A stretch of 64,000 nt of DNA from Bradyrhizobium commune (GTDB taxonomy: Bacteria > Pseudomonadota > Alphaproteobacteria > Rhizobiales > Xanthobacteraceae): contig NZ_CP061379.1 in NCBI RefSeq assembly GCF_015624505.1, positions 6,510,001 to 6,574,000 of the forward strand. The letters run 5' to 3'. The position numbers were made by a program, and so were the translations under genes. Positions within the stretch are counted from its first letter, which is position 1; the number at the start of each line of letters is the position of its first letter. A model generated the notes under the pieces. The model did no database searches. It worked only from the letters and a program-made list of their open reading frames with translations, and was not told where the DNA came from. Shown here in pieces: positions 13,281 to 33,124 of the stretch.

Positions 13281-14057
13281 ATGACTTCCGGTGGCTTGGA
13301 GTTGGTCGCTCGCGACGTCAGCGTCCAATTCGAAGGCTTGAAAGCGCTGTCCAAAGTCACCCTCTCTGTACCGCGGGGACGTATCACCGGATTGATCGGC
13401 CCCAACGGCGCCGGGAAGACGACACTCATCAACGTACTGACGGGATTCCAGCCGGTCGGTACAGGGATCGTGGAACTGGAAGGCGAAGCGCTCATTGGCA
13501 TCGCGGCACACAAGCTGCGACGCAAGGGTGTTGCGCGCACGTTCCAGTCCGGCCGTCTCTTCCGCGACCTGCCGGTCGTGGACAATCTGGAGGTGACCGG
13601 CGTCGGTCTTGGCCAGACTCGGCGCGAGGCGATCACGGAAGCCGAGCGCGTGATGGCGTGGCTCGGCATATCGCACCTCGCCGGCACGATCGCAGGCGCC
13701 CTGCCCTACACCGACGAGCGCCGCGTCGCCATCGGCCGCGCCATCATGTGCACGCCGCGTTATCTGCTGCTGGATGAACCGGCAGCGGGCATGTCCGAGC
13801 ATGAAAGCCACGATCTGGCCGTCATCATCAGGCGGATCGCCGGTGAGCTCCGCGTCGGCGTGCTGCTGATCGAGCACAATATCGGGCTGGTCCTCGAGCT
13901 CTGCGAGCGCATCTTCGTCCTCGATTCCGGCGAGATCATTGAAGTCGGAGATCCTGCGCAGATCCGCGACAGCGACGCCGTCCGGCATGCCTACATGGGC
14001 ACGCAGCGCGAGGAAGCGATTCCGGCCCTTGCTGCGGCCGAAGCAGGCGTCGCATGA
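13281..14057 (+). CDS. branched-chain-type ABC importer ATPase, LivG-like
   Basis: The 258-residue ATPase has Walker A GPNGAGKT at about residue 40, Walker B RYLLLDEPAAGMS and the H-loop LLIEHNIGLVLELC. LivG-type features include ARTFQSGRLF, the Q-loop region of this subfamily. The ABC signature is degenerate: LPYTDERRVAIGRAI instead of LSxGxxRR, so the signature Ser and Gly are replaced. AGAAGG lies 7 bases before the ATG. It is the first gene of a ten-gene operon, and the next gene overlaps it by four bases. Confidence 0.93.
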   Translation: MTSGGLELVARDVSVQFEGLKALSKVTLSVPRGRITGLIGPNGAGKTTLINVLTGFQPVGTGIVELEGEALIGIAAHKLRRKGVARTFQSGRLFRDLPVVDNLEVTGVGLGQTRREAITEAERVMAWLGISHLAGTIAGALPYTDERRVAIGRAIMCTPRYLLLDEPAAGMSEHESHDLAVIIRRIAGELRVGVLLIEHNIGLVLELCERIFVLDSGEIIEVGDPAQIRDSDAVRHAYMGTQREEAIPALAAAEAGVA

Positions 14058-14779
14058 TGACGCCGCTCGCCGTCGACGAGATCACGGTAACCTACGGACG
14101 CCTGACCGCCTTGCGAGGCGTGACGCTGGAGATCGCCGAGGGCGAGGTCCTGTTCGTGACCGGCCCCAACGGCGCCGGCAAGTCGACCCTGCTGAATGCC
14201 ATTGCGGGCGTCGTGCCGACGGGATCGGGCAGCATCACGATCGACGGCGCGAGAGTCACGGGAGCCTCGCCGGAGGACATCGCCCGGCGCGGCTTTTCGC
14301 TGGTGCCGGAAGGACGCAACGTCTTTGGCGCACTGAGCATCGAGGAGAATCTGAAGGTCGGCACCGGCATGCGGACCGACAGGAACAAGATCGCCGGCGA
14401 TCTGGAGTCCGTCTACGACGAATTCCCGATGCTGGCTGATCGACGGCATACTGCGGCCGGCATGCTCTCCGGTGGCCAGCAGCAGATGCTCGTCATCGGC
14501 CGCGCACTGATGACGGCGCCCCGCATCATGGCGATCGACGAGCCGTCGCTCGGCCTCGCGCCCAAGATCATCGATCAGGTCTACGAAATCCTGATGCGGC
14601 TGCGATCGCAGCGCAGGCTCACCCTGCTGATCGTCGAGCAGAGTTCGGCGCGCGCCATGATGACCGGCGGACGCATGATCCTGATCCGCGGCGGACGCAT
14701 CGTGCTCGAAGGCGCGGCCGCAGACATGGTCAAAGACGAACGCCTCAAGCAGGCCTATTTCGGCTTCGGAGACCACTGA
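14054..14779 (+). CDS. branched-chain-type ABC importer ATPase, LivF-like
   Basis: The 241-residue ATPase has GPNGAGKST (Walker A), VPEGRNVFGALSIEENL (LivF-specific stretch), LSGGQQQMLVIGRAL (signature) and MAIDEPSLGLAP (Walker B). It pairs with the LivG-like ATPase. The signature here is canonical, so if the LivG signature is weak, one of the two ATP sites may be degenerate. The start overlaps the upstream stop (ATGA). Confidence 0.94.
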   Translation: MMTPLAVDEITVTYGRLTALRGVTLEIAEGEVLFVTGPNGAGKSTLLNAIAGVVPTGSGSITIDGARVTGASPEDIARRGFSLVPEGRNVFGALSIEENLKVGTGMRTDRNKIAGDLESVYDEFPMLADRRHTAAGMLSGGQQQMLVIGRALMTAPRIMAIDEPSLGLAPKIIDQVYEILMRLRSQRRLTLLIVEQSSARAMMTGGRMILIRGGRIVLEGAAADMVKDERLKQAYFGFGDH

Positions 14780-14781
14780 GA

Positions 14782-15696
14782 ATGACAGCGGTCCTGCAAA
14801 TCATCTTCGACGCGCTGAGCCTCGGCAGTCTCTACGCCCTCGGCGCACTGGGCATCGCCCTGATCTTCGGCGTCATGCGTCTCGTCAACTTCGCCCATGG
14901 CGACTTCATCGCCTTCTGCGTGTTCGCGATGCTGTGGCCGTCGATCAACGCGACGGCCGTCGTCTTTGCCGGCAACCTGCCGTTCTTTCTCCTGATTCCG
15001 CTGTTGCTGCTCGTCGGGGCCGGACTTTCGATCCTGTCGGAGATCATCGTCTTCCGCCGCTTCCGCAACACCAATCCGGCGACGATGATGATCGCCTCCT
15101 TCGCCCTCGGCTTCGTCATCCGCCACGTCCTGCTGATGTTCTATTCGAGTCGGCCGAAATCGATCACGCTGTGGCCGAGCCTCGGCCTGCCGGTCGATTT
15201 TCTCGGCGCCCACATCCCGATGCTGCAAGTCGTGACCATCATCATCACGCTGGTTACGCTCGCCGTGCTCGTGCTGTTCCTCAAGCGCACGCGCTACGGT
15301 CTCGAAATGCGCGCGGCGGCCGAGAACTTCACCATGGCACGCATGCTCGGCGTCCGCGCCAACGGCGTCATCCTGCTGGCCTTCGCCATCAGCGGCATGC
15401 TGGCCGCCGCGATCGGATTGATCCTGGCTACCATCTCCGGCACCGCCGATATCAACATGGGCGCCAACGTCATGTTGATTGCCTTCATCGCCACCGTGAT
15501 CGGCGGTCTCGGCAGTGTGCCCGGCGCGGTTGCCGGCGGCTTCATCATTGGCGCCGCCAGCGTCGTGTTCCAGGCAACCTTGCCGCACGACGCGCGGGTC
15601 TTCCGCGACGCCTTCGTCTATGGCGCGGTGATCGTCGTGCTCCTGGTGCGGCCGCAGGGCCTGTTCGCACCAAAATCCGCCAAGCAGAGAGTTTGA
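14782..15696 (+). CDS. branched-chain-type ABC importer permease, LivH-like
   Basis: The 304-residue membrane protein has about eight hydrophobic helices. Near the N-terminus, GSLYALGALGIALIFGVMRLVNFAHGD matches the LivH signature 'G.iyaL.AlGl.li.G.....NfAhG'. The coupling loop includes RYGLEMRAAAENFTMARMLGV. It forms the channel with the LivM-like permease encoded three bases downstream. Confidence 0.94.
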   Translation: MTAVLQIIFDALSLGSLYALGALGIALIFGVMRLVNFAHGDFIAFCVFAMLWPSINATAVVFAGNLPFFLLIPLLLLVGAGLSILSEIIVFRRFRNTNPATMMIASFALGFVIRHVLLMFYSSRPKSITLWPSLGLPVDFLGAHIPMLQVVTIIITLVTLAVLVLFLKRTRYGLEMRAAAENFTMARMLGVRANGVILLAFAISGMLAAAIGLILATISGTADINMGANVMLIAFIATVIGGLGSVPGAVAGGFIIGAASVVFQATLPHDARVFRDAFVYGAVIVVLLVRPQGLFAPKSAKQRV

Positions 15697-15699
15697 TCG

Positions 15700-16773
15700 A
15701 TGCCGCAGCGACCATCAGTCATCCGGCAAACGATCATGACACCGATCATCCTGATCGTGGTGCTGCTGGTCATGGCGGCCCTGACCTACCAATTCGGCAG
15801 CCGCGCCTTCAACCGGACCGCCGTCGAGATGTTCATCAACATCATGATCGTGGTCGGCCTTTACGTGTTCGTCGGCAATTCGGGCCTGCTCTCGTTCGGA
15901 CACATCAGCTTCATGTGCCTCGGCGCCTACATGACCGCCTGGCTGGCGATCCCCCCGATGATGAAATCGATCACGCTCAAGGGGCTACCCGCGTGGCTGT
16001 TGCACACGCAGCTACCGATGTGGGTGGCCACGCCGATCTCGGGTTTGTTCGCGGCCTTGTTCGCGCTCATCGTCGGGCGCGTCATCATGCGCCTGTCGGG
16101 GATTGCCGCCTCGATCGCCACCTTCGGGCTGCTCGGTGTCGTCAACAACGTCTATTCGAACTGGGATTCCGTCACGGGCGGACAAGGTTCGATCGTCGGC
16201 ATACCGCCAACCATGAACGTCTGGATTGGATGGCTGGGTGCGGGGGTTGCGATCGCGATCGCTTATCTCTACGCGATCTCCCGCTCCGGGCTCGCGCTGC
16301 GCGCCACGCGCGACGAGTCCGTCGCCGCCAGTGCCTCCGGGATCGACATTGTCCGTGAGCGGTTGATCGCCTTCGTGGTCAGCGCCTTCATCATCGGCCT
16401 CGCCGGCGCGCTCTACGCGCACTTCCTGAGTATCGTCAATCCCGGCGCCTTTTATCTGCGGACGACCTTCATCACGCTGTCGATGCTGGTGGTCGGCGGC
16501 ATGTACAGCCTGAGCGGGGCGGTCACCGGCGTCGTCGCGATCTCGGTGCTGATCGAGCTGTTCCGCAGCCTGGAAAAGGGCATCAACCTCGGCGGAGCGA
16601 CCGTCGCGCTGCCGAACGGGATCCAGGAGATCGCGATCGGCATCATCACCATCGTCATCCTGATGTACCTGCCGACCGGCCTGACCCGCAACCAGGAGTT
16701 CTCCTGGCGCGGATGGCCGATGCAACGACGGTTGTCACGCCCCGTGCGGACGGCACTGAAGGAATCGAACTGA
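15700..16773 (+). CDS. branched-chain-type ABC importer permease, LivM-like
   Basis: The 357-residue membrane protein has the LivM landmarks GNSGLLSFGHISFMCLGAYM near the N-terminus, TGGQGSIVGIP in the middle and the coupling loop SRSGLALRATRDESVAASASGID. ATG 15700 fits the gene spacing; an internal ATG at 15736 is a possible alternative that would remove twelve polar residues before the first helix. Confidence 0.93.
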   Translation: MPQRPSVIRQTIMTPIILIVVLLVMAALTYQFGSRAFNRTAVEMFINIMIVVGLYVFVGNSGLLSFGHISFMCLGAYMTAWLAIPPMMKSITLKGLPAWLLHTQLPMWVATPISGLFAALFALIVGRVIMRLSGIAASIATFGLLGVVNNVYSNWDSVTGGQGSIVGIPPTMNVWIGWLGAGVAIAIAYLYAISRSGLALRATRDESVAASASGIDIVRERLIAFVVSAFIIGLAGALYAHFLSIVNPGAFYLRTTFITLSMLVVGGMYSLSGAVTGVVAISVLIELFRSLEKGINLGGATVALPNGIQEIAIGIITIVILMYLPTGLTRNQEFSWRGWPMQRRLSRPVRTALKESN

Positions 16774-16801
16774 AGGTCACTGCACAATCGGAGGAATGGT
16801 T

Positions 16802-17989
16802 ATGCGTCTTATGAAAATACTGGGCATCCTGGCTGGACTGTCCACGCTCTCGTTCACAGCGGCCAAGGCGGCCGACGAGATCGTCATCGGATTTGCGACC
16901 GCGGCGTCGGGCTTCATGCAGGCCTATGACAAGCCGGCGCAGGATGCGGCGATGATCCGGATCGACGAGATCAACAAGGCCGGCGGCCTGCTCGGCAAGA
17001 AGATCAAGACCGTGTCGGCCGACACCAAGACCGACCAGGCCGAAGGCGCCAAGGCCGGCCTTGCAGTGCTCGACCAGGGCGCCGACCTCGTGATCGTCTC
17101 GTGCGACTACGATTTCGGCGCGCCGGCAGCGCTCCAGGCGCAGGCGGCGGGCAAGGTCTCGTTCTTCCTCTGCGCCGAGTCGATCAAGGCCGGCATCCCC
17201 GGCGTCGGCCCCTACTCGTTCTCCGCCTCGGTTCTGGCGGCCGTGCAGGGGGCGACCATGGCGGAATGGGCCTACGACAAGAAGAATGCCCGCAGCTTCT
17301 ACCGGCTGCTCGACAGCTGGACCGTCTACAACAAGGGCATTTGCGACGGCTTCGACTGGATGATGCCGAAGCTGAAGGACGCGACGCTGGCCGGAAGCGA
17401 CACGTTCAAGAATGACGACGCCTCGATCGCATCCCAGATCACGCGCATCAAGAGCCTGCCGAAGGAGCCCGACGCGATCATGGTCTGCACCATGATGCCG
17501 GGCGCGGTTTCGGCCATCAAGCAGATCCGGGCCGCAGGCATCAAATCGATGATCCTCAACGGCTCCAGCATGGACGGCAGCTATTGGCTGAACGCCATTC
17601 CGGACCTGTCGAACTTCTACGTCCCGGTGCAAGGCTCGATCTACGGCGACGATCCCAACCCGAAGGTCAACGAGTTCAACAAGAAGTACAAGGAAGCAAC
17701 CGGCGGCGATCCCTCCAGCCAGTACGTCTATCCCGGCTATGTCCTGATTGACGTGTGGGCCAAGGCGGTGGAACGCGCCAAGACCACCGACGCACCGGCC
17801 GTCGTTGCCGAACTGGAAAAGATGAACAACGAGGCCACGCTGTTCGGGCCGCGCACCTTCAACAAGGACATCCATCACCAGAACCAGGGCCGTTACCTGA
17901 TCATCGATACCGAGGGGGGCAAGCCGAAGATGGTCGATCAGTGGACGATCTCGGAGAAGATCCCGGTCGACTATCTGGTGTCGAAGTAG
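16802..17989 (+). CDS. ABC transporter substrate-binding protein, family 4 (Leu/Ile/Val-type fold)
   Basis: The 395-residue periplasmic protein has a cleavable signal peptide (MRLMKILGILAGLSTLSF...AKA|ADE). GGAGG at 16790-16794 is 7 bases before ATG 16802, which makes it the better start than ATG 16796. The mature part is a type I periplasmic-binding fold (EINKAGGLLGKKIKTVSADTKTD, the usual 'iNa.GGv.Grki.lv..Dd.'). It delivers the substrate of the operon. Placement directly before the lactamase/carboxylase genes says the cargo is probably their substrate. A strong hairpin follows the gene. Confidence 0.93.
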   Translation: MRLMKILGILAGLSTLSFTAAKAADEIVIGFATAASGFMQAYDKPAQDAAMIRIDEINKAGGLLGKKIKTVSADTKTDQAEGAKAGLAVLDQGADLVIVSCDYDFGAPAALQAQAAGKVSFFLCAESIKAGIPGVGPYSFSASVLAAVQGATMAEWAYDKKNARSFYRLLDSWTVYNKGICDGFDWMMPKLKDATLAGSDTFKNDDASIASQITRIKSLPKEPDAIMVCTMMPGAVSAIKQIRAAGIKSMILNGSSMDGSYWLNAIPDLSNFYVPVQGSIYGDDPNPKVNEFNKKYKEATGGDPSSQYVYPGYVLIDVWAKAVERAKTTDAPAVVAELEKMNNEATLFGPRTFNKDIHHQNQGRYLIIDTEGGKPKMVDQWTISEKIPVDYLVSK

Positions 17990-18000
17990 ATTGGCGAAGC

Positions 18001-18027
18001 GCCGCCCGCGGTGCACCTGCGGGCGGC
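18001..18027 (+). terminator. hairpin after the binding-protein gene (attenuator or stabiliser)
   Basis: GCCGCCCGC (18001-18009) and GCGGGCGGC (18019-18027) form a perfect 9-base stem around a 9-base loop. It begins 11 bases after the binding-protein stop, inside the operon. There is no U-run after it, so I read it as a partial terminator or mRNA-stabilising structure that keeps the binding protein more abundant than the enzymes downstream. A direct repeat of GAATGCAAGCC (18043-18053 and 18056-18066) follows. Confidence 0.65.
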
Positions 18028-18086
18028 CTTGCGCCTTGGGTCGAATGCAAGCCTTGAATGCAAGCCGTTGAGAGGAAACAAGAGAG

Positions 18087-18815
18087 ATGGTCGTGATTAA
18101 TTGCGACATGGGCGAGGCCTATGGCCTCTACAAGATGGGCGACGACAAGGGGTTGATGCCCCATATCGACGTTGCCAACGTGGCCTGCGGCTTCCATGCA
18201 TCCGACTTCAATCACATGCGCAAGACTGTGCAGCTCGCCAAGCAATTCGGCGTCAAGGTTGGCGCCCATCCTTCGCTGCCGGACCTGCAAGGGTTTGGAC
18301 GGCGGGAGATGAAGATCGACCGCGAGGAGCTGACCAACTGCCTGCTCTACCAGATCGGCGCGCTCAAGGCGTTCCTGGACGCCGAGGGCGTGCCGCTCAA
18401 TCACATCAAGCCACACGGCGCGCTCTACGGCATGGCGGCGCGGAACGAGGAGATCGCGGAGGCGATCGCCGATGCTGCCGATGTCTACAAGGTACCGCTC
18501 CTCGGCATGAAGGGGACGCTGCATCAGATGGTCTACGAGCGGCGCGGCCACACCTTCGTCGCCGAGTACTACGCCGACCTCGACTACAATGCCGACGGCA
18601 GCCTCATCATCACGCGCGAGCACGAAGCCAAGGATCCGACCGATGCGGCCTCGCGGTGCACGCGGGCGGTGAATGAAGGCAAGACCCGCACGGTGGCCGG
18701 AAACGACGTCCTGGTCGGAGCCGATTCCATCTGCATCCACTCCGACACGCCCAATGCCGTCGCGATCGCGCACGCCGTTCGCGAGGCGGTCCGCCCCTAC
18801 CTCACCGCGCGGTGA
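18087..18815 (+). CDS. pxpA: LamB/YcsF family protein, 5-oxoprolinase subunit A-like
   Basis: The 242-residue protein has INCDMGEAYGLYKMGDD at the N-terminus, ANVACGFHASD, VGAHPSLPDLQGFGRREM and IKPHGALYGMAA, all signatures of the LamB/YcsF (PxpA) family. PxpA forms the ATP-dependent 5-oxoprolinase with PxpB and PxpC; relatives act with biotin-dependent partners. Here KipI/KipA (PxpB/PxpC) follow, but two biotin genes are inserted between them. The substrate may therefore be a lactam other than 5-oxoproline. The symbol marks family membership, not proven substrate. Confidence 0.88.
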   Translation: MVVINCDMGEAYGLYKMGDDKGLMPHIDVANVACGFHASDFNHMRKTVQLAKQFGVKVGAHPSLPDLQGFGRREMKIDREELTNCLLYQIGALKAFLDAEGVPLNHIKPHGALYGMAARNEEIAEAIADAADVYKVPLLGMKGTLHQMVYERRGHTFVAEYYADLDYNADGSLIITREHEAKDPTDAASRCTRAVNEGKTRTVAGNDVLVGADSICIHSDTPNAVAIAHAVREAVRPYLTAR

Positions 18816-18856
18816 GGCGGGAAGACCCGAAGAGACGAGCCCATCAGGAGGTCCCC

Positions 18857-19099
18857 ATGGCAACACAGCAGATATTCTCGCCGCTCCCCGGCATATTCTA
18901 CCGCAAGCCCGCACCCGACAAGCCGGACTACAAGAGCGACGGGGACACGATCACGGAGAACGACACGATCGGGCTCATCGAGGTGATGAAATCGTTCAAC
19001 GAGGTGAAAGCCGGCGCGGCGGGCAAGATTTTGCGCTTCCTGGCGGAGAATGAGGACGCCGTGATGGCAGGACAGGCAATTGCCGAGATTGATGTTTGA
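18857..19099 (+). CDS. biotin carboxyl carrier protein, minimal biotinyl domain
   Basis: This is an 80-residue protein consisting of little more than one biotinyl/lipoyl domain. The biotin lysine lies in EVMKSFNEV (canonical E-[AV]-M-K). A perfect AGGAGG at 18846-18851 precedes ATG 18857. It lacks the Ala/Pro-rich N-terminal arm of housekeeping AccB (about 150 residues). It is translationally linked with the biotin carboxylase downstream. It presumably carries CO2 from that enzyme to the KipI/KipA-like carboxyltransferase, as BCCP does within urea carboxylase. Confidence 0.9.
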   Translation: MATQQIFSPLPGIFYRKPAPDKPDYKSDGDTITENDTIGLIEVMKSFNEVKAGAAGKILRFLAENEDAVMAGQAIAEIDV

Positions 19100-19115
19100 A
19101 ACCTTTCGACCGGCC

Positions 19116-20516
<1,401 letters not shown>

Positions 20517-20559
20517 CCGCAAGAGAATCTGCCCCGTCAGCAACAGGAGGCCGCTAGTC

Positions 20560-21435
20560 ATGCAAACCCGATTTTCCTACGGCGGCGACGAGCACATCTT
20601 TGCCGAGGTCGCCGAGTCCATGTCGCTGGAAGCCTTTTTCAAGGGCCTCTTCATCACCAATGCGGTGCGCGACGCCGAGATCAAGGGCGTCACGGAGATC
20701 TGCCCGGCCAATGCGTCCTATCAGGTCAAGTTCGATCCGGATCAAATCAAGCCCGACGATCTGCTTGCCGAGCTGAAACGTCTGGATTCCGCGTCCGAGA
20801 CATCCGCCCCCGTCATCAAGACGCGGATCATCGAAATCCCCGTTCTCTACAATGATCCCTGGACACACGAGACGCTGATGCGCTTCCGCGAGCGCCATCA
20901 GGATCCCAACGGCACCGATCTCGAATACGCCGCGCGTATCAATGGGCTCGATGGAGTCGATTCCTTCATCAAAGCGCACTCCAGCGCGCCCTGGTTCGTC
21001 TCGATGGTCGGCTTCGTCGCCGGCCTGCCGTTCCTCTACCAGATGGTGGAGCGGCAGCGGCAGATCCAGGCGCCGAAATATCTGCGCCCGCGCACGGACA
21101 CGCCGAAACTCACCGTCGGGCACGGCGGATGCTTCAGCTGCATCTATTCGGTGCGCGGCGCCGGCGGCTACCAGATGTTCGGCATCACGCCGATGCCGAT
21201 CTACGATCCCAACCAGACGATCAGTTACCTGCGCGACTTCATGTGCCTGTTCAAGCCGGGCGACATCGTGAAATGGAAACCGATCGACCGATCGGCCTAT
21301 GACGCGGCGGTCGCCGATGTCGATGCGGGTCGTTTTGCCCCTGTGATCCGCGATGTCTCGTTCTCGCTGACCGAGTTCAACCAGGACATCGATGCCTATA
21401 ACCGCAAGCTCGAGGGGGTTCTCCATGGCCATTAA
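20560..21435 (+). CDS. KipI/PxpB-like carboxyltransferase subunit (divergent)
   Basis: The 291-residue protein of the allophanate-hydrolase-subunit-1/5-oxoprolinase-B family starts at ATG 20560 behind AGGAGG (20545-20550). The C-terminal cyclophilin-like part is recognisable (FVSMVGFVAGLPFLYQM, then GAGGYQMFGITPMPIY). It differs from typical PxpB: the usual 'GF.PGF.YL' has Ala for the first Pro, and the 'aGSVgiag.qtgiYp' stretch reads VGHGGCFSCIYSV. It is also some 60 residues longer than ordinary KipI. It resembles the carboxyltransferase half of urea-carboxylase-like enzymes. The next gene overlaps it by 11 bases. Confidence 0.85.
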   Translation: MQTRFSYGGDEHIFAEVAESMSLEAFFKGLFITNAVRDAEIKGVTEICPANASYQVKFDPDQIKPDDLLAELKRLDSASETSAPVIKTRIIEIPVLYNDPWTHETLMRFRERHQDPNGTDLEYAARINGLDGVDSFIKAHSSAPWFVSMVGFVAGLPFLYQMVERQRQIQAPKYLRPRTDTPKLTVGHGGCFSCIYSVRGAGGYQMFGITPMPIYDPNQTISYLRDFMCLFKPGDIVKWKPIDRSAYDAAVADVDAGRFAPVIRDVSFSLTEFNQDIDAYNRKLEGVLHGH

Positions 21436-22402
21436 GGTTTTGAAGCCGGGTCTTGCGACCACCGTCCAGGACCTTGGGCGTCCCGGCTATTATCACATCG
21501 GCATTCCGCTTTCGGGCGGCATGGATCGTCACGCGCTTGCGGCTGCAAACCTGCTTGTCGGCAACGCGGAAGGCGCTGCGGTCCTCGAAGCCGTGTTCAT
21601 GGGGCCGGAGCTCGAGTTCACCGACGACGCCCTGGTCGCGATCACCGGCGCCGAGCTGCCGCCGAAACTCGATGGCGAGCCGCGCGAGACCTGGACGAGC
21701 TTCAAGGTGAAGCGTGGTCAAAAGCTCTCCTTCGATTTCCTCAAGCAGGGCGCGCGCGGTTACATCGCGATCGCCGGCGGCATCGACGTGCCGCTCGTGT
21801 TGGGCTCACGTTCCACCTACGCGCTCGGCGGGCTCGGCGGCTTCAAGGGCCGGAAGCTCGAGGCCGGTGACGAGCTTCCGATCGGCAACGCCGGCGCAGC
21901 GGTCAAGGACGGCCGCTCGGTCGCGAAGGATCTGCGCGGCCTGCCGGCGGCGATGCCAACGGAATTGCGCGTCATGCCCGGCCTCTATTGGCACCGCATC
22001 ACCGAGACCGCTGGCAACGGCTTCTTCAGCGGCACCTGGAAGGTCGCGCCGGAAGCCGACCGGATCGGCTATCGTTTCAGGGGCGGCAAGCCGCTCGAGT
22101 TCGTGCCGCGCGAGCCGCCCTTCGGGGCCGGTTCCGATCCGTCCAACATCACCGATGCCTGCTACCCCTACGGTTCGATCCAGGTTCCCGGCGGCACCGA
22201 GCCGATCGTGCTGCATCGTGACGCCGTCTCGGGCGGCGGCTATTTCATGGTCGGAACGGTCATCGCAGCGGACATGGATCTGATCGGCCAGCTGCAACCC
22301 AATACGCCGGTGAGGTTCGTCAAGGTCGGGATGGACGAAGCACTTGCGGCGCGCAAGAGCCGGGCCGAGTTGCTGGGCAAGCTCCGGGGCGCATTGGCGT
22401 AG
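21425..22402 (+). CDS. KipA/PxpC-like biotin-dependent carboxyltransferase subunit
   Basis: The 325-residue protein begins with the family signature: LKPGLATTVQDLGRPGYYHIG, PLSGGMDRHALAAANLLVGN and LEAVFMGPELEF (canonical 'TtvQDlGRpGy', 'sGAmD..A...AN.lvGN', 'lE.t..Gp'). Near the C-terminus, GGYFMVGTVIAADMDLIGQL is also typical. KipA and KipI interlock to form the carboxyltransferase/oxoprolinase core. Translation is coupled to the KipI-like gene. It is the last gene of the operon; a weak stem (GCTCCTGG 22404-22411 with CCAGGAGC 22445-22452) follows. Confidence 0.9.
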   Translation: MAIKVLKPGLATTVQDLGRPGYYHIGIPLSGGMDRHALAAANLLVGNAEGAAVLEAVFMGPELEFTDDALVAITGAELPPKLDGEPRETWTSFKVKRGQKLSFDFLKQGARGYIAIAGGIDVPLVLGSRSTYALGGLGGFKGRKLEAGDELPIGNAGAAVKDGRSVAKDLRGLPAAMPTELRVMPGLYWHRITETAGNGFFSGTWKVAPEADRIGYRFRGGKPLEFVPREPPFGAGSDPSNITDACYPYGSIQVPGGTEPIVLHRDAVSGGGYFMVGTVIAADMDLIGQLQPNTPVRFVKVGMDEALAARKSRAELLGKLRGALA

Positions 22403-22614
22403 AGCTCCTGGACCTCAGGGCCAAAGGGGCGGTACGCTCGGCTGCCAGGAGCCGAGACAACCGCGCATGGGCGCTTGCCCTATTCTACCAATCTTGTTGC
22501 TTCAGTCGCCCACGAGCCCGTTGGGCACGAGAGTTGCAGAGACGAATCTTGCGCCGAGAAGCAGCGCTCAACCGCTCGTGAGTTAGGCAAATTCAAAATA
22601 TCGGATCGACCGCG

Positions 22615-23580
22615 ATGTCCGTTTCCCTGAAACAAATCCGCTATTTCGTCGCCGCCGCCGAGACTGGACGTATCAGCCAGGCGGCCATCGACCTGAACGT
22701 ATCGCAATCCGCGGTAACCGCCGCGATCCAGCAGCTCGAAGCGACGGTCTGCGCCCGTCTGCTGGAACGCACGCCAACCGGCGTGACCGTCACCATGGAA
22801 GGCAGCCGGTTCCTGTCGCAGGGACGACAAATCCTCGCAGCGGTCGCCGAAGCCGTACGCGGGACCCATATGTCGGCGGGGCCGCTGTTCGGAACCGTGC
22901 GCGTCGGCGTCACCTACACTGTTTCCGGTTATTTCCTGCCGCGCCATCAGATGCGTTTCCAGGCAAGCTTTCCCGGGATCAAAGTCGAGCTGTTCGAGGC
23001 ACCGCGCGACGTGCTCGAACGCGCGCTCGTTGACGGCGCGCTCGATCTCGGCGTCATGCTGGTCTCGAACCTGCACAATAATGCCATGCTCGCGAGCGAG
23101 ACCTTGCTGCGGTCGCCACGCCGGTTGTGGCTCGCTCCCGATCATCCGCTCACGCGCGCCGAGCGGGTCCATCTCGCGGAGATTGCGACCTACCCATACG
23201 TCATGCTCACCGTCGACGAGGCCAAGCATACCTCGATGCGCTATTGGAACGCCTTGTCGCTCGAACCGCGGACGATCTTCCGCACCTCCTCGGTCGAAGC
23301 CGTCCGGTCCATGGTCGCAGGCGGAATGGGCATTACCATCCTGTCCGATCTCGTCTACCGACCCTGGTCGCTCGAGGGCCAGCGGATCGAGACCCGCGTC
23401 ATCGAGAACGAAGTGCCTAGCATGGACGTTGGACTGGCCTGGCGCCGCGACTCCAAATTCTCCGAGGCGACGAAAGCTTTCCGCGACTTCATGCGCTTTG
23501 CCGTGGCCGGCGTCGGTTCGGCACGCCCCCCTGTCGGTACCGATCACCGGCAGCGGTCGGAGGAGGCCATCGAAATCTAA
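22615..23580 (+). CDS. LysR-family transcriptional regulator
   Basis: The 321-residue protein has an N-terminal winged HTH (residues 1-62: LKQIRYFVAAAETGRISQAA, then VSQSAVTAAIQQLE) and a LysR substrate-binding domain from about residue 90. It lies in the same direction as, and 212 bases after, the lactamase operon and before the AraC/hydantoinase genes. It is a good candidate to control one or both halves of the locus. The ligand is probably a pathway intermediate. Confidence 0.93.
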   Translation: MSVSLKQIRYFVAAAETGRISQAAIDLNVSQSAVTAAIQQLEATVCARLLERTPTGVTVTMEGSRFLSQGRQILAAVAEAVRGTHMSAGPLFGTVRVGVTYTVSGYFLPRHQMRFQASFPGIKVELFEAPRDVLERALVDGALDLGVMLVSNLHNNAMLASETLLRSPRRLWLAPDHPLTRAERVHLAEIATYPYVMLTVDEAKHTSMRYWNALSLEPRTIFRTSSVEAVRSMVAGGMGITILSDLVYRPWSLEGQRIETRVIENEVPSMDVGLAWRRDSKFSEATKAFRDFMRFAVAGVGSARPPVGTDHRQRSEEAIEI

Positions 23581-23709
23581 GATACCCGCCTCCGCTTTAT
23601 TCGATTTGACGCCGTCCCGTCGTCCTCGCCAAGATTCGGTCGATCGCGGCGGTCCACGCAATGAGAGAGAGCAAGGCCCGAACGAGCGACGGCGGGGACG
23701 GAGTGCGGC

Positions 23710-24669
23710 ATGCAGGCTACTCATGCGACCAGCGATGTTCCTCCGCAAAGTCGGCGGCATTTCTGGCAGGACGTCGTCTCCAAGACTTATTTCCCGCTCG
23801 ATCTTGTCTTTCCCGGCGGCCGCGACTTCCATGCGAGCCTGGGCGCCTGGACCATGGGCCCCCTCTCGGTCTCCCGCAACGTCTCGAATGGGCTGCTCTA
23901 CAGGCGCCACGAACGGCACCTGGTAAACGAGCGGGAAGAATGTTTCCTCATCACGGTCCCTGAGCTCGCTGAAATCCGCTTTGAGCAGGACGGCAAGGAC
24001 GTCCGATGCCAGCCAGGCGCATTCGTGATCGAGCGAAGCCATTTGCCATATGAATTCAGCCATCACGATCCGGCGGCGCTATGGGTCCTGAAAGTGCCAA
24101 GCGCCGTGCTGCGCACCCGGATATCCCGTCCCGAACGCCTCGCTACGCTGCAATTCGACGCCAGCCGCAGCGTAGGCGCGCTGTTCGTCGACACCTTGCG
24201 GTTTGCCGGTGAGCGCATCGCGGCAATGGACGATGCGGCCCACGCCGTGATGGGCAAGCACCTGATCGATCTTCTGGCAATGGTGATCGAGGCCGACGAA
24301 CGCGTGCTGACGGGCCACTCCTCCTCCGTTCGCAACGGCCACCTGCATCGCTGCGAGCTGTTCATTCGCTCGCGTCTCGACGATATGCGGCTCACACCGC
24401 AAATGGTCGCGGACGGCTGCGGCATCTCGCTCAGATATCTGCACCAGATCTTTGAGGGAGAGGGCATTACCGTTTGCGCCTATATTCGGAACCAGCGCCT
24501 GTCGATGTCCGACACCATGCTGCGCGATCCCACCTGCCGAATGAGCATCTCGGAGATCGCCTACCAATGCGGTTTCGGCGACCAGGCGCAGTTCAGCCGG
24601 AACTACCGCGCCCGGTTCGGCTGCACCCCGAGCGATGCTCGCGCCGCATCGCGTGCCGCCCTGCCCTGA
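23710..24669 (+). CDS. AraC-family transcriptional regulator
   Basis: The 319-residue protein has an AraC-binding-like N-terminal domain (about 20-190, with LYRRHERHLVNEREE and WVLKVPSAVLRTR) and a C-terminal double HTH. The second HTH contains ISEIAYQCGFGDQAQFSRNYRARFG. The architecture matches the AraC protein at 1425-2456. It lies directly before hyuA and is likely its activator. Confidence 0.92.
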   Translation: MQATHATSDVPPQSRRHFWQDVVSKTYFPLDLVFPGGRDFHASLGAWTMGPLSVSRNVSNGLLYRRHERHLVNEREECFLITVPELAEIRFEQDGKDVRCQPGAFVIERSHLPYEFSHHDPAALWVLKVPSAVLRTRISRPERLATLQFDASRSVGALFVDTLRFAGERIAAMDDAAHAVMGKHLIDLLAMVIEADERVLTGHSSSVRNGHLHRCELFIRSRLDDMRLTPQMVADGCGISLRYLHQIFEGEGITVCAYIRNQRLSMSDTMLRDPTCRMSISEIAYQCGFGDQAQFSRNYRARFGCTPSDARAASRAALP

Positions 24670-24835
24670 AGCGCCATCCGCGCAGCACCACTGACTGATC
24701 CCCAGGCATCCCGCTGCCGATCCTGGCGCGACAACCGTTCGTGCTCTCTCGCACAAGACTTCCTGCGCTCAGCGTCAAGAAAAGCGGTCGACGATCTGCC
24801 TATGATCGACGAACGCAATTCGATGAGGAAGTCGC

Positions 24836-26863
24836 ATGGTGCAGAACCTTCGCGTGGCCGTCGACGTCGGCGGTACCTTTACCGACATCTGCATCATGGA
24901 CGAAGCAACCGGCCTCATCCGTATTGAAAAGACCTCGTCGACGCGCGATCCCATCGAGGGGATCATGGGCGGCGTATCCAAGGCCGGCATCGACCTTGCC
25001 GAGGTGGCGCTGTTCTCTCACGGCACGACCGTTGCGACCAACGCGCTGATCACACGCCGCCTGCCCCGCACCGCCGTGGTCACGACCAAGGGGTTTCGCG
25101 ACGTCATCGAGATCCGACGCGCCAACAAGGAAGACCTCTGGGATACCTACAAGGATGTCGTCAAGCCTTACGTCCCGCGGCGCGACCGCCTGACCGTCCC
25201 CGAACGCGTCGATGCGGGCGGCATCGTGATCGAGCCGCTCGATCTCGAGGCGGCACGCAACGTCGCGCGCATCCTCAAGCGCCGCGGCGTTGCTGCGATC
25301 GCCGTCTGCTTCATGAATGCCTATCTCAACGGCGCCAATGAGAGGGCGATGCGCGATATCCTCCTCGAGGAAATGCCCGACATTCCGGTCTCGATCTCCT
25401 CACAGGTGCTCCCCGAAATCTTCGAGCACGAACGGTTCTCGACCACGGTCGCGAATGCCGTCGTGAGCCCGGTCGTGGTCAGCTACACGAGCAGGCTCGG
25501 CGAACGTCTCGCCGACGAGGGCTATACCCGCGATCTCCTGCTGCTGCACACCGGCGGCGGCGTCATGACGCCGGCAAGCGTCAAGGATTTCGCCGCGCGC
25601 CTGGCGGGATCGGGCATTGCCGCCGGCGCCATCGCCAGCCGCTACATCGCCGGCCTCTGCGGCTTTCCCAATTCGATCGGCCTCGACATGGGGGGCACCT
25701 CGACCGACGTCTCGCTGGCCTATGAAGGGCAGTCGCGCATCACCAAGGACTGGTATATCGAGTTCGGCTATCCGATCCGCTTTGCCTCTATCGAGGTCCT
25801 CACCATCGGTGCGGGCGGCGGATCGCTGGCCTGGACCGACCCGGCCGGCTCGCTGCGGAACGGCCCGCAATCGGCCGGCGCCTTTCCGGGCCCCGCCTGC
25901 TACAGCAACGGCAACACGCAGCCGACCAATACGGACGCCAACGTCACGCTCGGTCGCCTCGGCACCAATCTCGCGGGCGGCAAGGTGAAGCTTGACCCCG
26001 CGCTGGCACGCCAGGCGGTCGAGGACGGCGTCGCAAAGCCATTCGGGCTCGGCCTGCACGAGGCTGCCGACGCGATCGTCAAGGTCGCCAACGCCAACAT
26101 GTCGGATGCCGTGCGACTGATCTCGATCAGCCGCGGCTACGATCCGCGCGACTTCGCCCTGGTGGCCTTCGGCGGCGCCGGCGCCCTGCACGGGGTCGAT
26201 GTCGCCCGTGAGCTTGCGATCCCCGTCGTCATCGTGCCGCCCAATCCGGGCGTGACCTCGGCGCTCGGCTGTCTCCTGGTCGACATGCAGCACGATTTTT
26301 CGCAGAGCTGCATGGTCGGTGCCGATGAGGCCGATGCCGCCGATATCGAGGCACAGTTCGCGGTCCTGGAGAAAGACGCACTCGCCCGGCTCACCCACGA
26401 AGGCATCGCACCAGAGGACATCGTGCTCCAGCGATCGATCGACATGATGTATCGCGGCCAATGGCGATCGCTCGCGGTCCGTGCGCCGAGCCCCATCGGC
26501 GTGATCGCCGACCTCGTCCAGAGCTTTCACGCCGAGCACAAGCGTGAGTACAATTTCCGCCGCGACAGTGCACCCGTCAGCTTCTTCCGTCTCAATCTGA
26601 AGGCGGTGGGCGTCGTCCCCAAGGCGGAGTTCGCCATCCACGAACCGACCGGTGTCACCCCTGAGCCGGTTGGCCGCCGCAGGGTGTGGTTCGACGGCAA
26701 CGGGTTGGACACGCCCGTCTACGAGCGCGACGACCTGCCCTGCGGCTTCTGCTTTCAAGGCCCCGCGATCATCGAGCAGGTCGATGCGACCACGGTCGTT
26801 CCGCCTGGCGCCAGCGCAGAGGTCGACAAGTATCTCAACATCATCATCCGCGTGAAGGAGTGA
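24836..26863 (+). CDS. hyuA: hydantoinase/oxoprolinase family protein, subunit A
   Basis: The 675-residue ATP-dependent ring-opening enzyme subunit has an actin-like fold with two phosphate loops: VDVGGTFTDICIMDEATG at the N-terminus and IGLDMGGTSTDVSLAY at about residue 280. FSHGTTVATNALITRR is the conserved hydantoinase_A stretch, and GGGSLAWTDPAG is the glycine-rich region. The family includes ATP-dependent N-methylhydantoinase, 5-oxoprolinase, caprolactamase and acetone/acetophenone carboxylase subunits. Its partner is the B subunit encoded three bases downstream. The molybdenum hydroxylase next door suggests an N-heterocyclic substrate. Confidence 0.92.
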   Translation: MVQNLRVAVDVGGTFTDICIMDEATGLIRIEKTSSTRDPIEGIMGGVSKAGIDLAEVALFSHGTTVATNALITRRLPRTAVVTTKGFRDVIEIRRANKEDLWDTYKDVVKPYVPRRDRLTVPERVDAGGIVIEPLDLEAARNVARILKRRGVAAIAVCFMNAYLNGANERAMRDILLEEMPDIPVSISSQVLPEIFEHERFSTTVANAVVSPVVVSYTSRLGERLADEGYTRDLLLLHTGGGVMTPASVKDFAARLAGSGIAAGAIASRYIAGLCGFPNSIGLDMGGTSTDVSLAYEGQSRITKDWYIEFGYPIRFASIEVLTIGAGGGSLAWTDPAGSLRNGPQSAGAFPGPACYSNGNTQPTNTDANVTLGRLGTNLAGGKVKLDPALARQAVEDGVAKPFGLGLHEAADAIVKVANANMSDAVRLISISRGYDPRDFALVAFGGAGALHGVDVARELAIPVVIVPPNPGVTSALGCLLVDMQHDFSQSCMVGADEADAADIEAQFAVLEKDALARLTHEGIAPEDIVLQRSIDMMYRGQWRSLAVRAPSPIGVIADLVQSFHAEHKREYNFRRDSAPVSFFRLNLKAVGVVPKAEFAIHEPTGVTPEPVGRRRVWFDGNGLDTPVYERDDLPCGFCFQGPAIIEQVDATTVVPPGASAEVDKYLNIIIRVKE

Positions 26864-26866
26864 ACC

Positions 26867-28828
26867 ATGGCCGGCGATCTCGCGCTCGACCCCGTGACCT
26901 TCGAGGTCCTCAAGAACTCCTTCATCACCAGCGTCGACCAAATGGGCGAGCAGGTGCTGCGCACCTGCTACTCCTTCGTCATCTACAACCGCGATTTTTC
27001 CAGCGCGCTGCACGACGCTCACGGCGAATGCGCGGCACAGGGCAATCAGGACATCGCCGTTCATGTCGGCACGTTGCATTTCACCTGCAAGGACGTCATG
27101 CGCCACTTCGACGGCGACATCCATGAAGGCGACGTCTTCGCCATCAACGACCCCTACGCCGGCGGCACGCACTTCCCGGATGTGCGCCTGATCCGGCCGA
27201 TTTTTGCCGACGGCAAGATCATCGCCTTCAGCCAGTCGAACGGCCATTGGTCGGATGTCGGCGGCAGCGTGCCGGGATCATTCGACGTCGCCGCGCGCGA
27301 AATGTTCCGCGAAGGCCTGCGCATCACGCCAATCCGCCTGTTCGACAAGGGCCGCTTCTGCAAGGACGTCGCGCATCTGATCGCCTCCAACACTCGCGAC
27401 CCCGTTTCGATCATCGGCGACATCCAGGCGCAATCCCAGGCGACCCAGGTCTGCGAGCGCGAGATCCTGCGCCTCGTCAACAAATATGGCCGCGACACCG
27501 TCGAGACCGGGCTCGCCGCCGTGCAGGACTATGTCGAACGCTCGGTCCGCCAGCGCATCGCAGCCCTACCCGATGGAGAATGGGAGACGGTCGACTTCAT
27601 CGACCGCGATCCCGCCGGCGGCGAAGGCATGATCCCGATCCGCATCAAGCTGACGATCAAGGGCGACCGCGCGATCTATGACTTCACCGGCAGTCATCCG
27701 ACCATCGGCTCGATCTACAATTCTGCTTTCGGTACCACCTTCTCGGCGGTGGCGGCCGGCATGAAGACTTTCTTCCCGGATCTCCCGCTCAACTCCGGAT
27801 TCTACCGCTGCTTCGAGATCATCGCGCCGGAAGGCTCGATCGTCGATGCCAAATGGCCGACCGCGGTCACCGGGTTCCTGATGCCGTTCGAAAAGATCAT
27901 GAACTCGATCTACGAGATGTGGTCGAAGCTGATGCCGGAGCGCGCGCTCGCCTGTGCCTTCAATCTCGAATATTTGCTCACCGGCGGGCTCGACGCCCGC
28001 AGCTCCGACAAGCCCATCTTCATGTTCTACGACTGGTTGCCTGGCGGCTGGGGCGGACGCAACGGCAAGGACGGCAGCAATGTCACGACGGCATGCTTCG
28101 GCACCGGCCTGATGTCGCAGCCCGTGGAAGGCCAGGAGCGCGCCAACCCGATCCTGACCACGGAATGCGAGATCCTCAAGGACTCGCCCGGTCCGGGCAA
28201 GTGGCGCGGCGGCGCCGGAGTGGTCAAGACCTCGCGCATGCTTCAGGCGGAGAAGACCGTCATCTCCTATATCTGCGACCGCGAGCGTGCCGTGGTATGG
28301 GGCATCGAAGGCGGTCTGCCGTCGATGCCGCACGGCCTGACGTTGACGCGTGCGGGCGGCCAGGCCGAGGAGCGGCTCGGCTCGATCTTCTCTGACGTTC
28401 CGATCGGCGAAGGCGACATCTTCACGCGCCCGACCGCCGGCGGCGGCGGGTTCGGCGACCCGCTCGAACGTGACCCGGCCCTCGTGATCGAAGACATCAA
28501 GGACGACTACGTCTCGATCGAGCGCGCCGCCAAGGATTACGGCGTTGTCGTGCACACCGTCGACGCTGAGCTGTGCGAATATGAGGTCGACAAGGCCGCG
28601 ACCGCAGCGCTTCGCACCAAAATCAGGGCCGAGCGTGTCGCCAATGTACGGCTTGATCCGGAGACCGTCGCGGAGCGTTTTCGCAGCGGCGCGATCGGCG
28701 TGCTCGACGTGATCCGCCAGCATGCCGTGATCCTCGACTGGGGCACCGGCGCCCTGCTGCCGAAATCCACAAGCCAGTTCCGCGAAGTATTTGAGCGCCG
28801 CTCGGTGGCAAAATGGAGCGCAAGCTGA
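26867..28828 (+). CDS. hyuB: hydantoinase/oxoprolinase family protein, subunit B
   Basis: The 653-residue partner of HyuA has the HyuB landmarks DPVTFEVLKNSFITSVDQMG at the N-terminus, INDPYAGGTHFPDVRLI, SNGHWSDVGGSVPGS and GGGGFGDPLERDP. It carries a helical C-terminal tail of about 100 residues. A/B heteromers of this type cleave cyclic amide bonds with ATP hydrolysis. Its 3' end overlaps possible starts of the next gene, so the hydantoinase and hydroxylase genes form one operon. Confidence 0.92.
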   Translation: MAGDLALDPVTFEVLKNSFITSVDQMGEQVLRTCYSFVIYNRDFSSALHDAHGECAAQGNQDIAVHVGTLHFTCKDVMRHFDGDIHEGDVFAINDPYAGGTHFPDVRLIRPIFADGKIIAFSQSNGHWSDVGGSVPGSFDVAAREMFREGLRITPIRLFDKGRFCKDVAHLIASNTRDPVSIIGDIQAQSQATQVCEREILRLVNKYGRDTVETGLAAVQDYVERSVRQRIAALPDGEWETVDFIDRDPAGGEGMIPIRIKLTIKGDRAIYDFTGSHPTIGSIYNSAFGTTFSAVAAGMKTFFPDLPLNSGFYRCFEIIAPEGSIVDAKWPTAVTGFLMPFEKIMNSIYEMWSKLMPERALACAFNLEYLLTGGLDARSSDKPIFMFYDWLPGGWGGRNGKDGSNVTTACFGTGLMSQPVEGQERANPILTTECEILKDSPGPGKWRGGAGVVKTSRMLQAEKTVISYICDRERAVVWGIEGGLPSMPHGLTLTRAGGQAEERLGSIFSDVPIGEGDIFTRPTAGGGGFGDPLERDPALVIEDIKDDYVSIERAAKDYGVVVHTVDAELCEYEVDKAATAALRTKIRAERVANVRLDPETVAERFRSGAIGVLDVIRQHAVILDWGTGALLPKSTSQFREVFERRSVAKWSAS

Positions 28829-28848
28829 CCGATCGAAACGAGAGCTCC

Positions 28849-29703
28849 ATGGATACGCCCATTTCGGGGTCGGTTTACGTCGCCCCGTCGCTATCGACGG
28901 CGCTCGACGCGCTCCACGAAGGCGGCTCCGCAGCTGCGCCCTTCGCTGGCGGCACCTGGATCATGCGCGCGCCAATCCGGCACGAGCAGCTCAAGTCCCG
29001 TTACGTCGCAATCGGGAAAATTCCAGAGCTCCACACGATCAAGGTCGATGCCGATGCGGTCGAGATCGGCGCCGCGGTCACACACGCCGCGCTGGCCACA
29101 GCGCTGGCGGAACTTGGGGAATTTGACGTGCTCACTGCGGCTGCCGGCCACTCCGCTAATCCGGCCATCCGCACGATGGCGACCATCGGCGGCAACCTGG
29201 CAACGACCGCATTCGCAGCGGCCGATTGCGTGCCCGCGCTGCTCTGCCTCGATGCCGAAGTCGAGATCGCGAGCCGTGACGATCGGGAGCGGACCAGCCT
29301 GGAGCAGTTCCTGACGATGAGATCGACGCTTGCGCCCGGGCGGCTGCTCCACCGGATCATCGTGCCTCGGCGCGACCGCAAGACGGTTCACGCTCGCCTG
29401 CCGCTACGGCGAGCCGGAGATTATCCGACCGCCATTGTCAGTCTCGCCATGATCCTCGACGACGCCGGGCTCGTTGAGACGGCGCGCATCGCCGTAGGTT
29501 CAGTCGAGCCGGTTGCGCGCCGATGGGGGCGTCTCGAGACTGCGCTCATCGGGCATCCGCTAAATGCGGCAAAGGCCGCGGAAGCTGCGGCCGAGCTGGC
29601 GGATGAATTTGCGGGTCGCGACGCCGCAGACGTGCCCGGCTGGTACCGCGTGCGCGTACTGCCAGGCCTCGTCCGCCGCGCCGTCGCCGCGCTTGGCTCT
29701 TGA
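28849..29703 (+). CDS. molybdenum hydroxylase FAD-binding subunit (CoxM/xanthine dehydrogenase type)
   Basis: The 284-residue medium subunit has the two FAD-binding motifs AGGTWIMRA (canonical AGGTDLM) and ATIGGNLATTAFAADC. ATG 28849 gives the best N-terminus; an ATG at 28813 overlaps hyuB. It passes electrons from the 2Fe-2S subunit to the acceptor. The gene order M-S-L matches the CoxMSL arrangement of molybdenum hydroxylases. Confidence 0.9.
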   Translation: MDTPISGSVYVAPSLSTALDALHEGGSAAAPFAGGTWIMRAPIRHEQLKSRYVAIGKIPELHTIKVDADAVEIGAAVTHAALATALAELGEFDVLTAAAGHSANPAIRTMATIGGNLATTAFAAADCVPALLCLDAEVEIASRDDRERTSLEQFLTMRSTLAPGRLLHRIIVPRRDRKTVHARLPLRRAGDYPTAIVSLAMILDDAGLVETARIAVGSVEPVARRWGRLETALIGHPLNAAKAAEAAAELADEFAGRDAADVPGWYRVRVLPGLVRRAVAALGS

Positions 29704-29713
29704 ACCGTCGGGG

Positions 29714-30178
29714 ATGAACATGGGCCTCAGCATGACCATCAACGGCGATCACCTCACCTCCACGGCCGATCCCGTCACCCCGCTCGTCGACGTCCTGCGC
29801 GAGGACTTTCATCTGACCGGCGCCAAGCCCGTGTGTCGCGAAGGGTTCTGCGGCGCCTGCATGGTGTTGATCGACGGCAATCCGACCCCGTCGTGCCTGA
29901 TACCGGCAGCGCTCGCCCAAGGCTGCGATATCCGCACCGTCGAGGGGCTGGCCGCAAATGGCAGGTTGAACCCGATCCAGGCCGCACTCGAGGCCTGCGA
30001 TGCTGTCCAATGCGGCATGTGCTTTCCCGGCATGGTCGTCAGCCTGACCCATCTCCTGACGACCCGCCCCGAGGCGACCCGCGACGACATTCGTGCCGCG
30101 CTGACGGGCAACATCTGCCGTTGCACCGGATATGAGCGCATCATTGAGGCTGCGCTGCTTGCGCTTGCTACGCCATGA
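29714..30178 (+). CDS. molybdenum hydroxylase 2Fe-2S subunit (CoxS type)
   Basis: The 154-residue small subunit has the N-terminal plant-ferredoxin-type cluster site CREGFCGACMVLIDG...SC and the C-terminal four-helix cluster site QCGMCFPGM with ICRCTGY. All eight expected cysteines appear present. I chose ATG 29714 (GGGG lies just before it); ATG 29720 and 29732 follow. The stop overlaps the start of the large-subunit gene. Confidence 0.93.
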   Translation: MNMGLSMTINGDHLTSTADPVTPLVDVLREDFHLTGAKPVCREGFCGACMVLIDGNPTPSCLIPAALAQGCDIRTVEGLAANGRLNPIQAALEACDAVQCGMCFPGMVVSLTHLLTTRPEATRDDIRAALTGNICRCTGYERIIEAALLALATP

Positions 30179-33117: not shown

Positions 33118-33124
33118 GACGGTT

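What the first reader, a model, noticed from the sequence alone, without database searches (positions are those of the whole stretch)
18087..22402. A split urea-carboxylase-like enzyme joined to a LamB/YcsF (PxpA) protein
Seen: pxpA-like, mini-BCCP, biotin carboxylase, KipI-like and KipA-like genes in that order, coupled by overlaps and strong Shine-Dalgarno sites, right after an ABC importer. Known: urea carboxylase carries biotin carboxylase, KipI/KipA-like carboxyltransferase and BCCP domains in one chain, while ordinary 5-oxoprolinase PxpABC uses no biotin. Inferred: this is a five-subunit biotin- and ATP-dependent enzyme that carboxylates and opens an imported lactam or amide. The divergent KipI (GFVAGLPFL in place of GFxPGFxYL) argues for an unusual substrate.
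Basis: partly seen in the sequence, partly recalled or inferred. Interest (0 to 1): 0.8.

Follow-up and report, generated by a model that had tools for sequence, protein, structure and literature searches.

The report
Biotin-linked cousin of 5-oxoprolinase
Five neighbouring genes in a soil bacterium look like the parts of one biotin-using enzyme that tags a ring-shaped amide with CO2 and then opens the ring, a combination that recurs in related bacteria and seems unstudied.

Summary
In detail: pxpA-BCCP-BC-kipI-kipA lie in this order at 18087-22402, after an ABC importer. It is not a one-off: the order is complete in 79 of 85 related loci and in 14 of 15 loci from an even sample of the class. 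I call the group T1. Its carboxyltransferase (KipI+KipA) is sister to that of urea/guanidine carboxylase (SH-aLRT 97 and 96) and keeps its catalytic lysine (KipI K173, 85 of 85), where all 31 oxoprolinase-type KipI sampled have Arg. At the residue taken to sort guanidine (Asp) from urea (Asn) enzymes T1 has Gln, as oxoprolinases do. BC does not group with urea-carboxylase BC, so 'split urea carboxylase' fits the carboxyltransferase only. T1 PxpA is its own subfamily. A bioY biotin-transporter gene often follows kipA. Best reading: a five-subunit ATP-, bicarbonate- and biotin-dependent enzyme that N-carboxylates a non-urea amide, probably a lactam, which PxpA then cleaves. Biotin use is well supported; complex, chemistry and substrate are inferred. 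'PxpABC uses no biotin' is too simple: 7 (or 8) of 25 oxoprolinase-type loci in an even sample also carry BC.

The parts
13281..16773 (+). ABC importer: two ATPases (13281-14057, 14054-14779) and two permeases (14782-15696, 15700-16773), branched-chain/urea type
   Evidence: ORFs; not scanned by Pfam themselves; named by likeness to L046 genes (ATPase 66%, permease 72% identical) that match LivG/UrtD and UrtB models below cut-off
16796..17989 (+). solute-binding protein of the importer
   Evidence: Peripla_BP_6, 172.9 bits
18087..18815 (+). PxpA (LamB/YcsF) of the T1a subfamily; Leu165, Thr176, Ser219
18857..19099 (+). BCCP, 80 aa, biotin lysine K45 in EVMKSF
   Evidence: (NF005457 above cut-off)
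19116..20516 (+). biotin carboxylase, 466 aa
   Evidence: (NF009471 above cut-off)
20560..21435 (+). KipI-like carboxyltransferase subunit; K173 aligns with the catalytic lysine of urea carboxylase
21425..22402 (+). KipA-like carboxyltransferase subunit; D244 and Q253
22615..23580 (+). LysR regulator; a homologue lies near 66 of 85 first-set and 10 of 15 new T1 loci, against 2 of 43 others
23710..24669 (+). AraC-type regulator
24836..28828 (+). HyuA (24836-26863) and HyuB (26867-28828), ATP-dependent lactamase/hydantoinase family; probable pathway partner
28813..32556 (+). molybdenum hydroxylase: FAD subunit 28813-29703, 2Fe-2S subunit about 29714-30178, molybdopterin subunit 30175-32556; possible pathway partner

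Best explanation
The five genes encode one biotin-dependent enzyme. BC uses ATP and bicarbonate to carboxylate biotin on BCCP K45. KipI+KipA, a carboxyltransferase of the urea-carboxylase type with K173 as general base, moves the carboxyl to the nitrogen of a cyclic amide (a lactam or the like). N-carboxylation weakens the amide bond; PxpA hydrolyses it and the carbamate loses CO2. The sum is ATP-driven ring opening with bicarbonate as helper, in the manner of urea amidolyase, with PxpA in the place of allophanate hydrolase. Shown by sequence: the subunits, the conserved order, the type of carboxyltransferase, the biotin lysine, the separate PxpA subfamily. Inferred: the complex, N-carboxylation, hydrolysis by PxpA, and the lactam.
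Against: No biochemistry exists here. L023 and L159 have no BC between BCCP and KipI. Arg-type KipI/KipA are also found with BC, so K173 marks the urea-carboxylase type, not biotin use as such. The conserved residues reflect one common ancestry, not repeated events. The lactamase link is weak in the even sample: HyuA near 1 of 10 T1a and 1 of 5 T1b. Non-T1 loci have mostly shorter flanks than T1 loci, which favours T1 in neighbour counts. Importers beside T1 differ. The KipI model has pLDDT 68 and under 50 around K173. Natrialba T1 genes are dispersed.
Confidence: 0.5

Rival explanations
1. It is a 5-oxoprolinase in essence: PxpA-KipI-KipA act on 5-oxoproline, and BC/BCCP are auxiliary or only add biotin dependence.
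For: PxpA, KipI and KipA belong to the PxpA/B/C families; KipA Q253 is shared with 30 of 30 oxoprolinase-type KipA; some oxoprolinase-type sets carry BC.
Against: KipI and KipA fall below the PxpB and PxpC cut-offs (75.2 of 145.55 and 229.4 of 500 bits) and group with urea carboxylase. T1 PxpA lacks Arg176, present in 29 of 29 others, and the window's T1a type also lacks Arg165. The genome has another PxpABC set without BC (L087).
Confidence: 0.15
2. It is a split urea or guanidine carboxylase whose product goes to an allophanate-type hydrolase.
For: Carboxyltransferase of the urea-carboxylase type with the catalytic lysine. The genome carries an allophanate hydrolase above cut-off (807.8 bits) and no fused urea carboxylase among its three KipI places. 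The importer models nearest are urea/branched-chain type.
Against: Gln in 83 of 85 T1 (two gaps) where 12 of 12 urea-carboxylase chains have Asp or Asn. BC does not group with urea-carboxylase BC. That hydrolase lies about 0.88 Mb away, while PxpA is in the operon.
Confidence: 0.08
3. The carboxylase and PxpA act in separate steps of one pathway: KipI/KipA with BC and BCCP carboxylate some metabolite (at N or C) for growth, and PxpA cleaves a different amide.
For: NCBIfam names BC and BCCP as acetyl-CoA carboxylase parts, above cut-off. Neighbours vary. Dispersed T1 genes in Natrialba.
Against: PxpA is next to BCCP in 80 of the 81 loci where it was found near the set, all but L139, and its subfamily goes with the type of carboxyltransferase. 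No acyl-CoA carboxyltransferase domain among the neighbours scanned (16796-33886).
Confidence: 0.17

Closest known systems
Urea carboxylase / guanidine carboxylase (TIGR02712; K. lactis 3va7, 5i8i)
   Same: Carboxyltransferase type, catalytic lysine, KipA insert and D244; BC + BCCP + carboxyltransferase division of labour
   Different: Five separate chains; Gln for Asp/Asn at the substrate residue; BC of another branch; PxpA instead of allophanate hydrolase
PxpABC 5-oxoprolinase (E. coli YbgJKL, L100)
   Same: PxpA, KipI(PxpB) and KipA(PxpC) homologues in one cluster; Gln at KipA 253
   Different: BC and BCCP present; KipI/KipA of the urea-carboxylase type; PxpA subfamily without Arg176 and, in T1a, Arg165
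BC-linked oxoprolinase-type clusters (here T2; L088, L142, L144; M. smegmatis MSMEG_0435-0436 bound to an acyl-CoA carboxylase complex, PDB 9yx5)
   Same: PxpA + KipI + KipA + BC + BCCP
   Different: Arg-type KipI, Ser at KipA 244, ordinary PxpA residues, other gene orders and fusions
Caprolactamase CapAB (HyuA/HyuB family)
   Same: ATP-driven lactam opening, bicarbonate-dependent in vitro (PMC8453981, abstract passage); CapA-type gene near 24 of 55 T1a loci, the L043 pair above both cut-offs
   Different: Different families and no biotin; a neighbour, not part of the five-subunit set; weak link in the even sample

Membership tests
Urea/guanidine carboxylase | catalytic lysine of the carboxyltransferase (K. 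lactis Lys1605) | tested here: met
   KipI K173; 85 of 85 T1, 12 of 12 UC
Urea/guanidine carboxylase | Asp (guanidine) or Asn (urea) at the substrate residue | tested here: not met
   Gln253 in KipA; rule from a passage of PMC12186494; residue number recalled
Urea/guanidine carboxylase | one chain of about 1200 aa with BC, carboxyltransferase and BCCP; TIGR02712 cut-off | tested here: not met
   separate genes; partial scores 517.5, 234.2, 111.6 and 20.5 bits against 1303.85
Urea/guanidine carboxylase | BC of the urea-carboxylase branch | tested here: not met
   tree (quick tree)
PxpABC 5-oxoprolinase | PxpA, PxpB and PxpC homologues clustered | tested here: met
PxpABC 5-oxoprolinase | PxpB and PxpC model cut-offs | tested here: not met
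   TIGR00370 75.2 of 145.55; NF045499 229.4 of 500; PxpA subfamily NF003814 is met, 271.6 of 226
PxpABC 5-oxoprolinase | conserved PxpA residues Arg165, Arg176, Gly219 | tested here: not met
   Leu, Thr, Ser in the window; that they define activity is inference
PxpABC 5-oxoprolinase | ATP-dependent turnover of 5-oxoproline | not testable with these tools
   needs an assay
Biotin-dependent carboxylase | BC with ATP-grasp core and catalytic motifs | tested here: met
   GGGGRG and E.N.R.QVEH..TE motifs both present in 80 of 82 T1 BC
Biotin-dependent carboxylase | BCCP with a biotin lysine | tested here: met
   EVMKSF, K45; actual biotinylation not testable here
Biotin-dependent carboxylase | subunits form a complex with carboxylase activity | not testable with these tools
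   needs purification and assay
Acetyl-CoA carboxylase (the name of NF009471 and NF005457) | AccA/AccD-type carboxyltransferase partner nearby | tested here: not met
   none among Pfam-scanned neighbours 16796-33886; KipI/KipA are there instead; an unlinked partner was not searched for

The most novel reading that the evidence does not exclude
T1 is an uncharacterised class of biotin enzyme that opens lactams or cyclic amides made from N-heterocycles by transient N-carboxylation, joining urea-carboxylase chemistry to a PxpA hydrolase: a biotin N-carboxylase for substrates other than urea and guanidine. In the window it would act after a molybdenum hydroxylase that makes the lactam.
Probability: 0.4. 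Interest if true: 0.8.

Novelty: new variant of a known kind. Interest (0 to 1): 0.6.

Why it matters
To my knowledge (recalled) biotin-dependent N-carboxylation of substrates is established for urea and guanidine only. A five-gene set found in 16 of 289 evenly drawn genomes of the class (the window's genome included), whose parts databases call 'acetyl-CoA carboxylase' and '5-oxoprolinase', would be a new amide-opening enzyme with direct tests at hand. The BC-linked oxoprolinase types reopen the question whether some 5-oxoprolinases use biotin.

Tried and rejected
Split urea carboxylase by simple fission: rejected, since BC does not group with urea-carboxylase BC. K173 as a mark of biotin use in general: rejected, since Arg-type KipI also sit with BC. 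HyuAB as a general partner: weakened; HyuA near 39 of 55 T1a and 2 of 26 T1b in the first set but 1 of 10 and 1 of 5 in the even sample. An isochorismatase-like gene beside L149: homologues in only 2 of 143 loci. A class-III aminotransferase beside L068: 100% in L068, 28% in L040 and in L118, a PxpABC-only locus, 46% beside L157. Riboswitch: no Rfam match at gathering score in the window. Promoter and terminator scan of 17900-22700: 0 promoter-like (0.7 expected), 2 terminator-like (3.4 expected). Fisher tests (HyuAB p 5e-8, bioY p 0.016) treat related loci as independent and are only a guide. All trees are 'quick' ones, with long branches among the oxoprolinase types. In L076 my count took the farther of two pxpA genes; the nearer one also has Arg165. 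An antisense-biased ORF picker was replaced by tblastn for all core genes.

Literature: ten full-text searches listed no paper whose title or abstract start describes this five-gene enzyme; the founding PxpABC paper and the K. lactis urea carboxylase structure paper are not held, so whether they mention such clusters was not seen. Papers read in passages only: PMC5770610, PMC8453981, PMC13274462, PMC12186494, PMC6061476, PMC12427679, PMC11001197.

Full report
What is there. The five genes read as described: PxpA 18087-18815, BCCP 18857-19099, BC 19116-20516, KipI 20560-21435, KipA 21425-22402. KipI and KipA overlap by 11 bases; the other gaps are 41, 16 and 43 bases (read). Upstream is an ABC importer whose solute-binding protein is Peripla_BP_6. 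Downstream come LysR, AraC, HyuA and HyuB and a three-subunit molybdenum hydroxylase. The genome is one contig of 7.62 Mb. The 14 closest KipI (91-97% identical) are from records titled Bradyrhizobium.

Three related sets in one genome. The genome has three KipI, three PxpA and three KipA places: the window; L087 at 3.82 Mb with PxpA, KipA and KipI but no BC or BCCP seen within the 18 kb fetched; and L088 at 6.47 Mb with oxoprolinase-type KipI plus BC and BCCP. Another stand-alone BC lies at 4.22 Mb (454 aa frame), so the window BC is probably not the housekeeping one.

A conserved group, here called T1. With the window, L129, L133, L139 and L143 this makes 85 T1 loci. The order PxpA-BCCP-BC-KipI-KipA is complete in 79; four are cut by contig ends, L023 lacks BC, and in the Natrialba plasmid L139 the genes are dispersed. 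As a check, 289 evenly drawn genomes of the class gave 16 with T1, the window's included. The 15 other loci were fetched; one, L157, is the place of L129 seen before. The order is complete in 14 of 15; L159 (a 4.7 kb contig) has no BC between BCCP and KipI.

Not a urea or guanidine enzyme by its residues. A review says Asp is found in guanidine and Asn in urea carboxylases (PMC12186494, passage). In the column I take for this residue (number recalled, mapped through 3va7) UC has Asp 11 and Asn 1 of 12; T1 has Gln in 83 of 85 (two gaps), like 30 of 30 oxoprolinase-type KipA, and in 15 of 15 new loci. Against this, the genome does carry an unlinked allophanate hydrolase above cut-off.

BC and BCCP. 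In a quick tree 13 of 14 sampled T1 BC form one branch apart from UC BC; the Natrialba BC falls elsewhere, and T2 BC fall in several places. NCBIfam puts window BC and BCCP above cut-off in families named acetyl-CoA carboxylase (773.6 of 686 and 114.3 of 87 bits). BCCP reads E-V/I-M-K in 80 of 81 T1 found; in L-loci one read MAMKQIL. A bioY gene follows or overlaps the end of kipA in 9 of 85 loci, lies 3.8 kb on in a tenth, and was found in 0 of 43 non-T1 loci, most of which have shorter flanks (Pfam check of three ORFs). In the even sample it directly follows kipA in 6 of 15 and lies 5 kb off in one more at 35% identity. The window's genome has one bioY, elsewhere.

Substrate clues. CapA-type genes lie near 24 of 55 T1a loci; a different HyuA near 15 more, the window and 14 Bradyrhizobium records. 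The L043 pair passes both caprolactamase cut-offs; the window pair does not (479.5 and 317.9 of 1000 bits). In the even sample HyuA was near 1 of 10 T1a and 1 of 5 T1b, so this is no general rule. A molybdenum-hydroxylase large subunit lies near 12 of 100 T1 loci (L129 and L157 being one place; the window was searched further out than the rest) and 0 of 43 others. Such enzymes often turn an N-heterocycle into a lactam (general knowledge). Importers are branched-chain-, sugar- or polyamine-type. A lactam is likely but unproven, and members may differ.

Biotin beyond T1. Of 100 evenly drawn genomes of the phylum 28 had PF02682, 41 places, 3 of them this genome's. All 38 others were fetched and sorted: 11 UC type, 2 T1, 7 oxoprolinase type with BC, 1 with PxpA, BCCP and BC about 3 kb off on the other strand, 17 without BC in the stretch. 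PDB 9yx5 is titled as the M. smegmatis long-chain acyl-CoA carboxylase complex with MSMEG_0435-MSMEG_0436 bound; its KipI is Arg-type (alignment). Its paper was not seen. C. glutamicum PxpABC work treats PxpB/PxpC as a phosphorylating pair (PMC13274462, passages).

Mechanism and verdict. Best reading: ATP- and bicarbonate-driven carboxylation of BCCP-biotin, transfer to an amide nitrogen by KipI/KipA, hydrolysis by PxpA, loss of CO2. The first step follows from the families; the rest is inferred. I file T1 neither under urea carboxylase nor under PxpABC, since features of each were tested and not met; it would work like the first with a hydrolase like the second.

Noticed in passing
L088 (this genome, 6.47 Mb), L102, L106, L109, L112, L116, L117, L119, L142, L144: Oxoprolinase-type PxpA/KipI/KipA with BC in the same locus. 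In 6 of 10 KipI-KipA are fused (52-57 kDa) and in 7 of 10 BC carries a BCCP-like C-terminus (60-63 kDa), close to the 64 and 51 kDa parts reported for the P. putida two-component 5-oxoprolinase. That enzyme may be biotin-dependent.
   Followed up: partly
window 28813-32556: Molybdenum hydroxylase genes (FAD, 2Fe-2S and molybdopterin subunits) directly after HyuB; similar large subunits near 12 of 100 T1 loci.
   Followed up: partly
L139 (Natrialba magadii plasmid pNMAG02): A haloarchaeal T1 relative (KipI 51% identical) with KipI, KipA and BCCP together, PxpA and a BC several kb away, next to a peptide-type ABC importer.
   Followed up: partly
L023 8751-9001 and L159 2100-2500: T1 clusters in which BCCP is followed directly by KipI with no BC between; BC may be supplied from elsewhere or missing from these assemblies.
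   Followed up: no
L076 4549-5319 and 6583-7332: Two pxpA genes close together in one T1b locus.
   Followed up: no
window 5612-6841: An amidase-family stretch (108 bits to the allophanate hydrolase model, below cut-off) upstream of the importer.
   Followed up: no
L142 and L144: BC-linked PxpA/KipI/KipA sets on Lactiplantibacillus and Klebsiella plasmids, with a gene annotated putative hydro-lyase and an NRAMP-family transporter.
   Followed up: no
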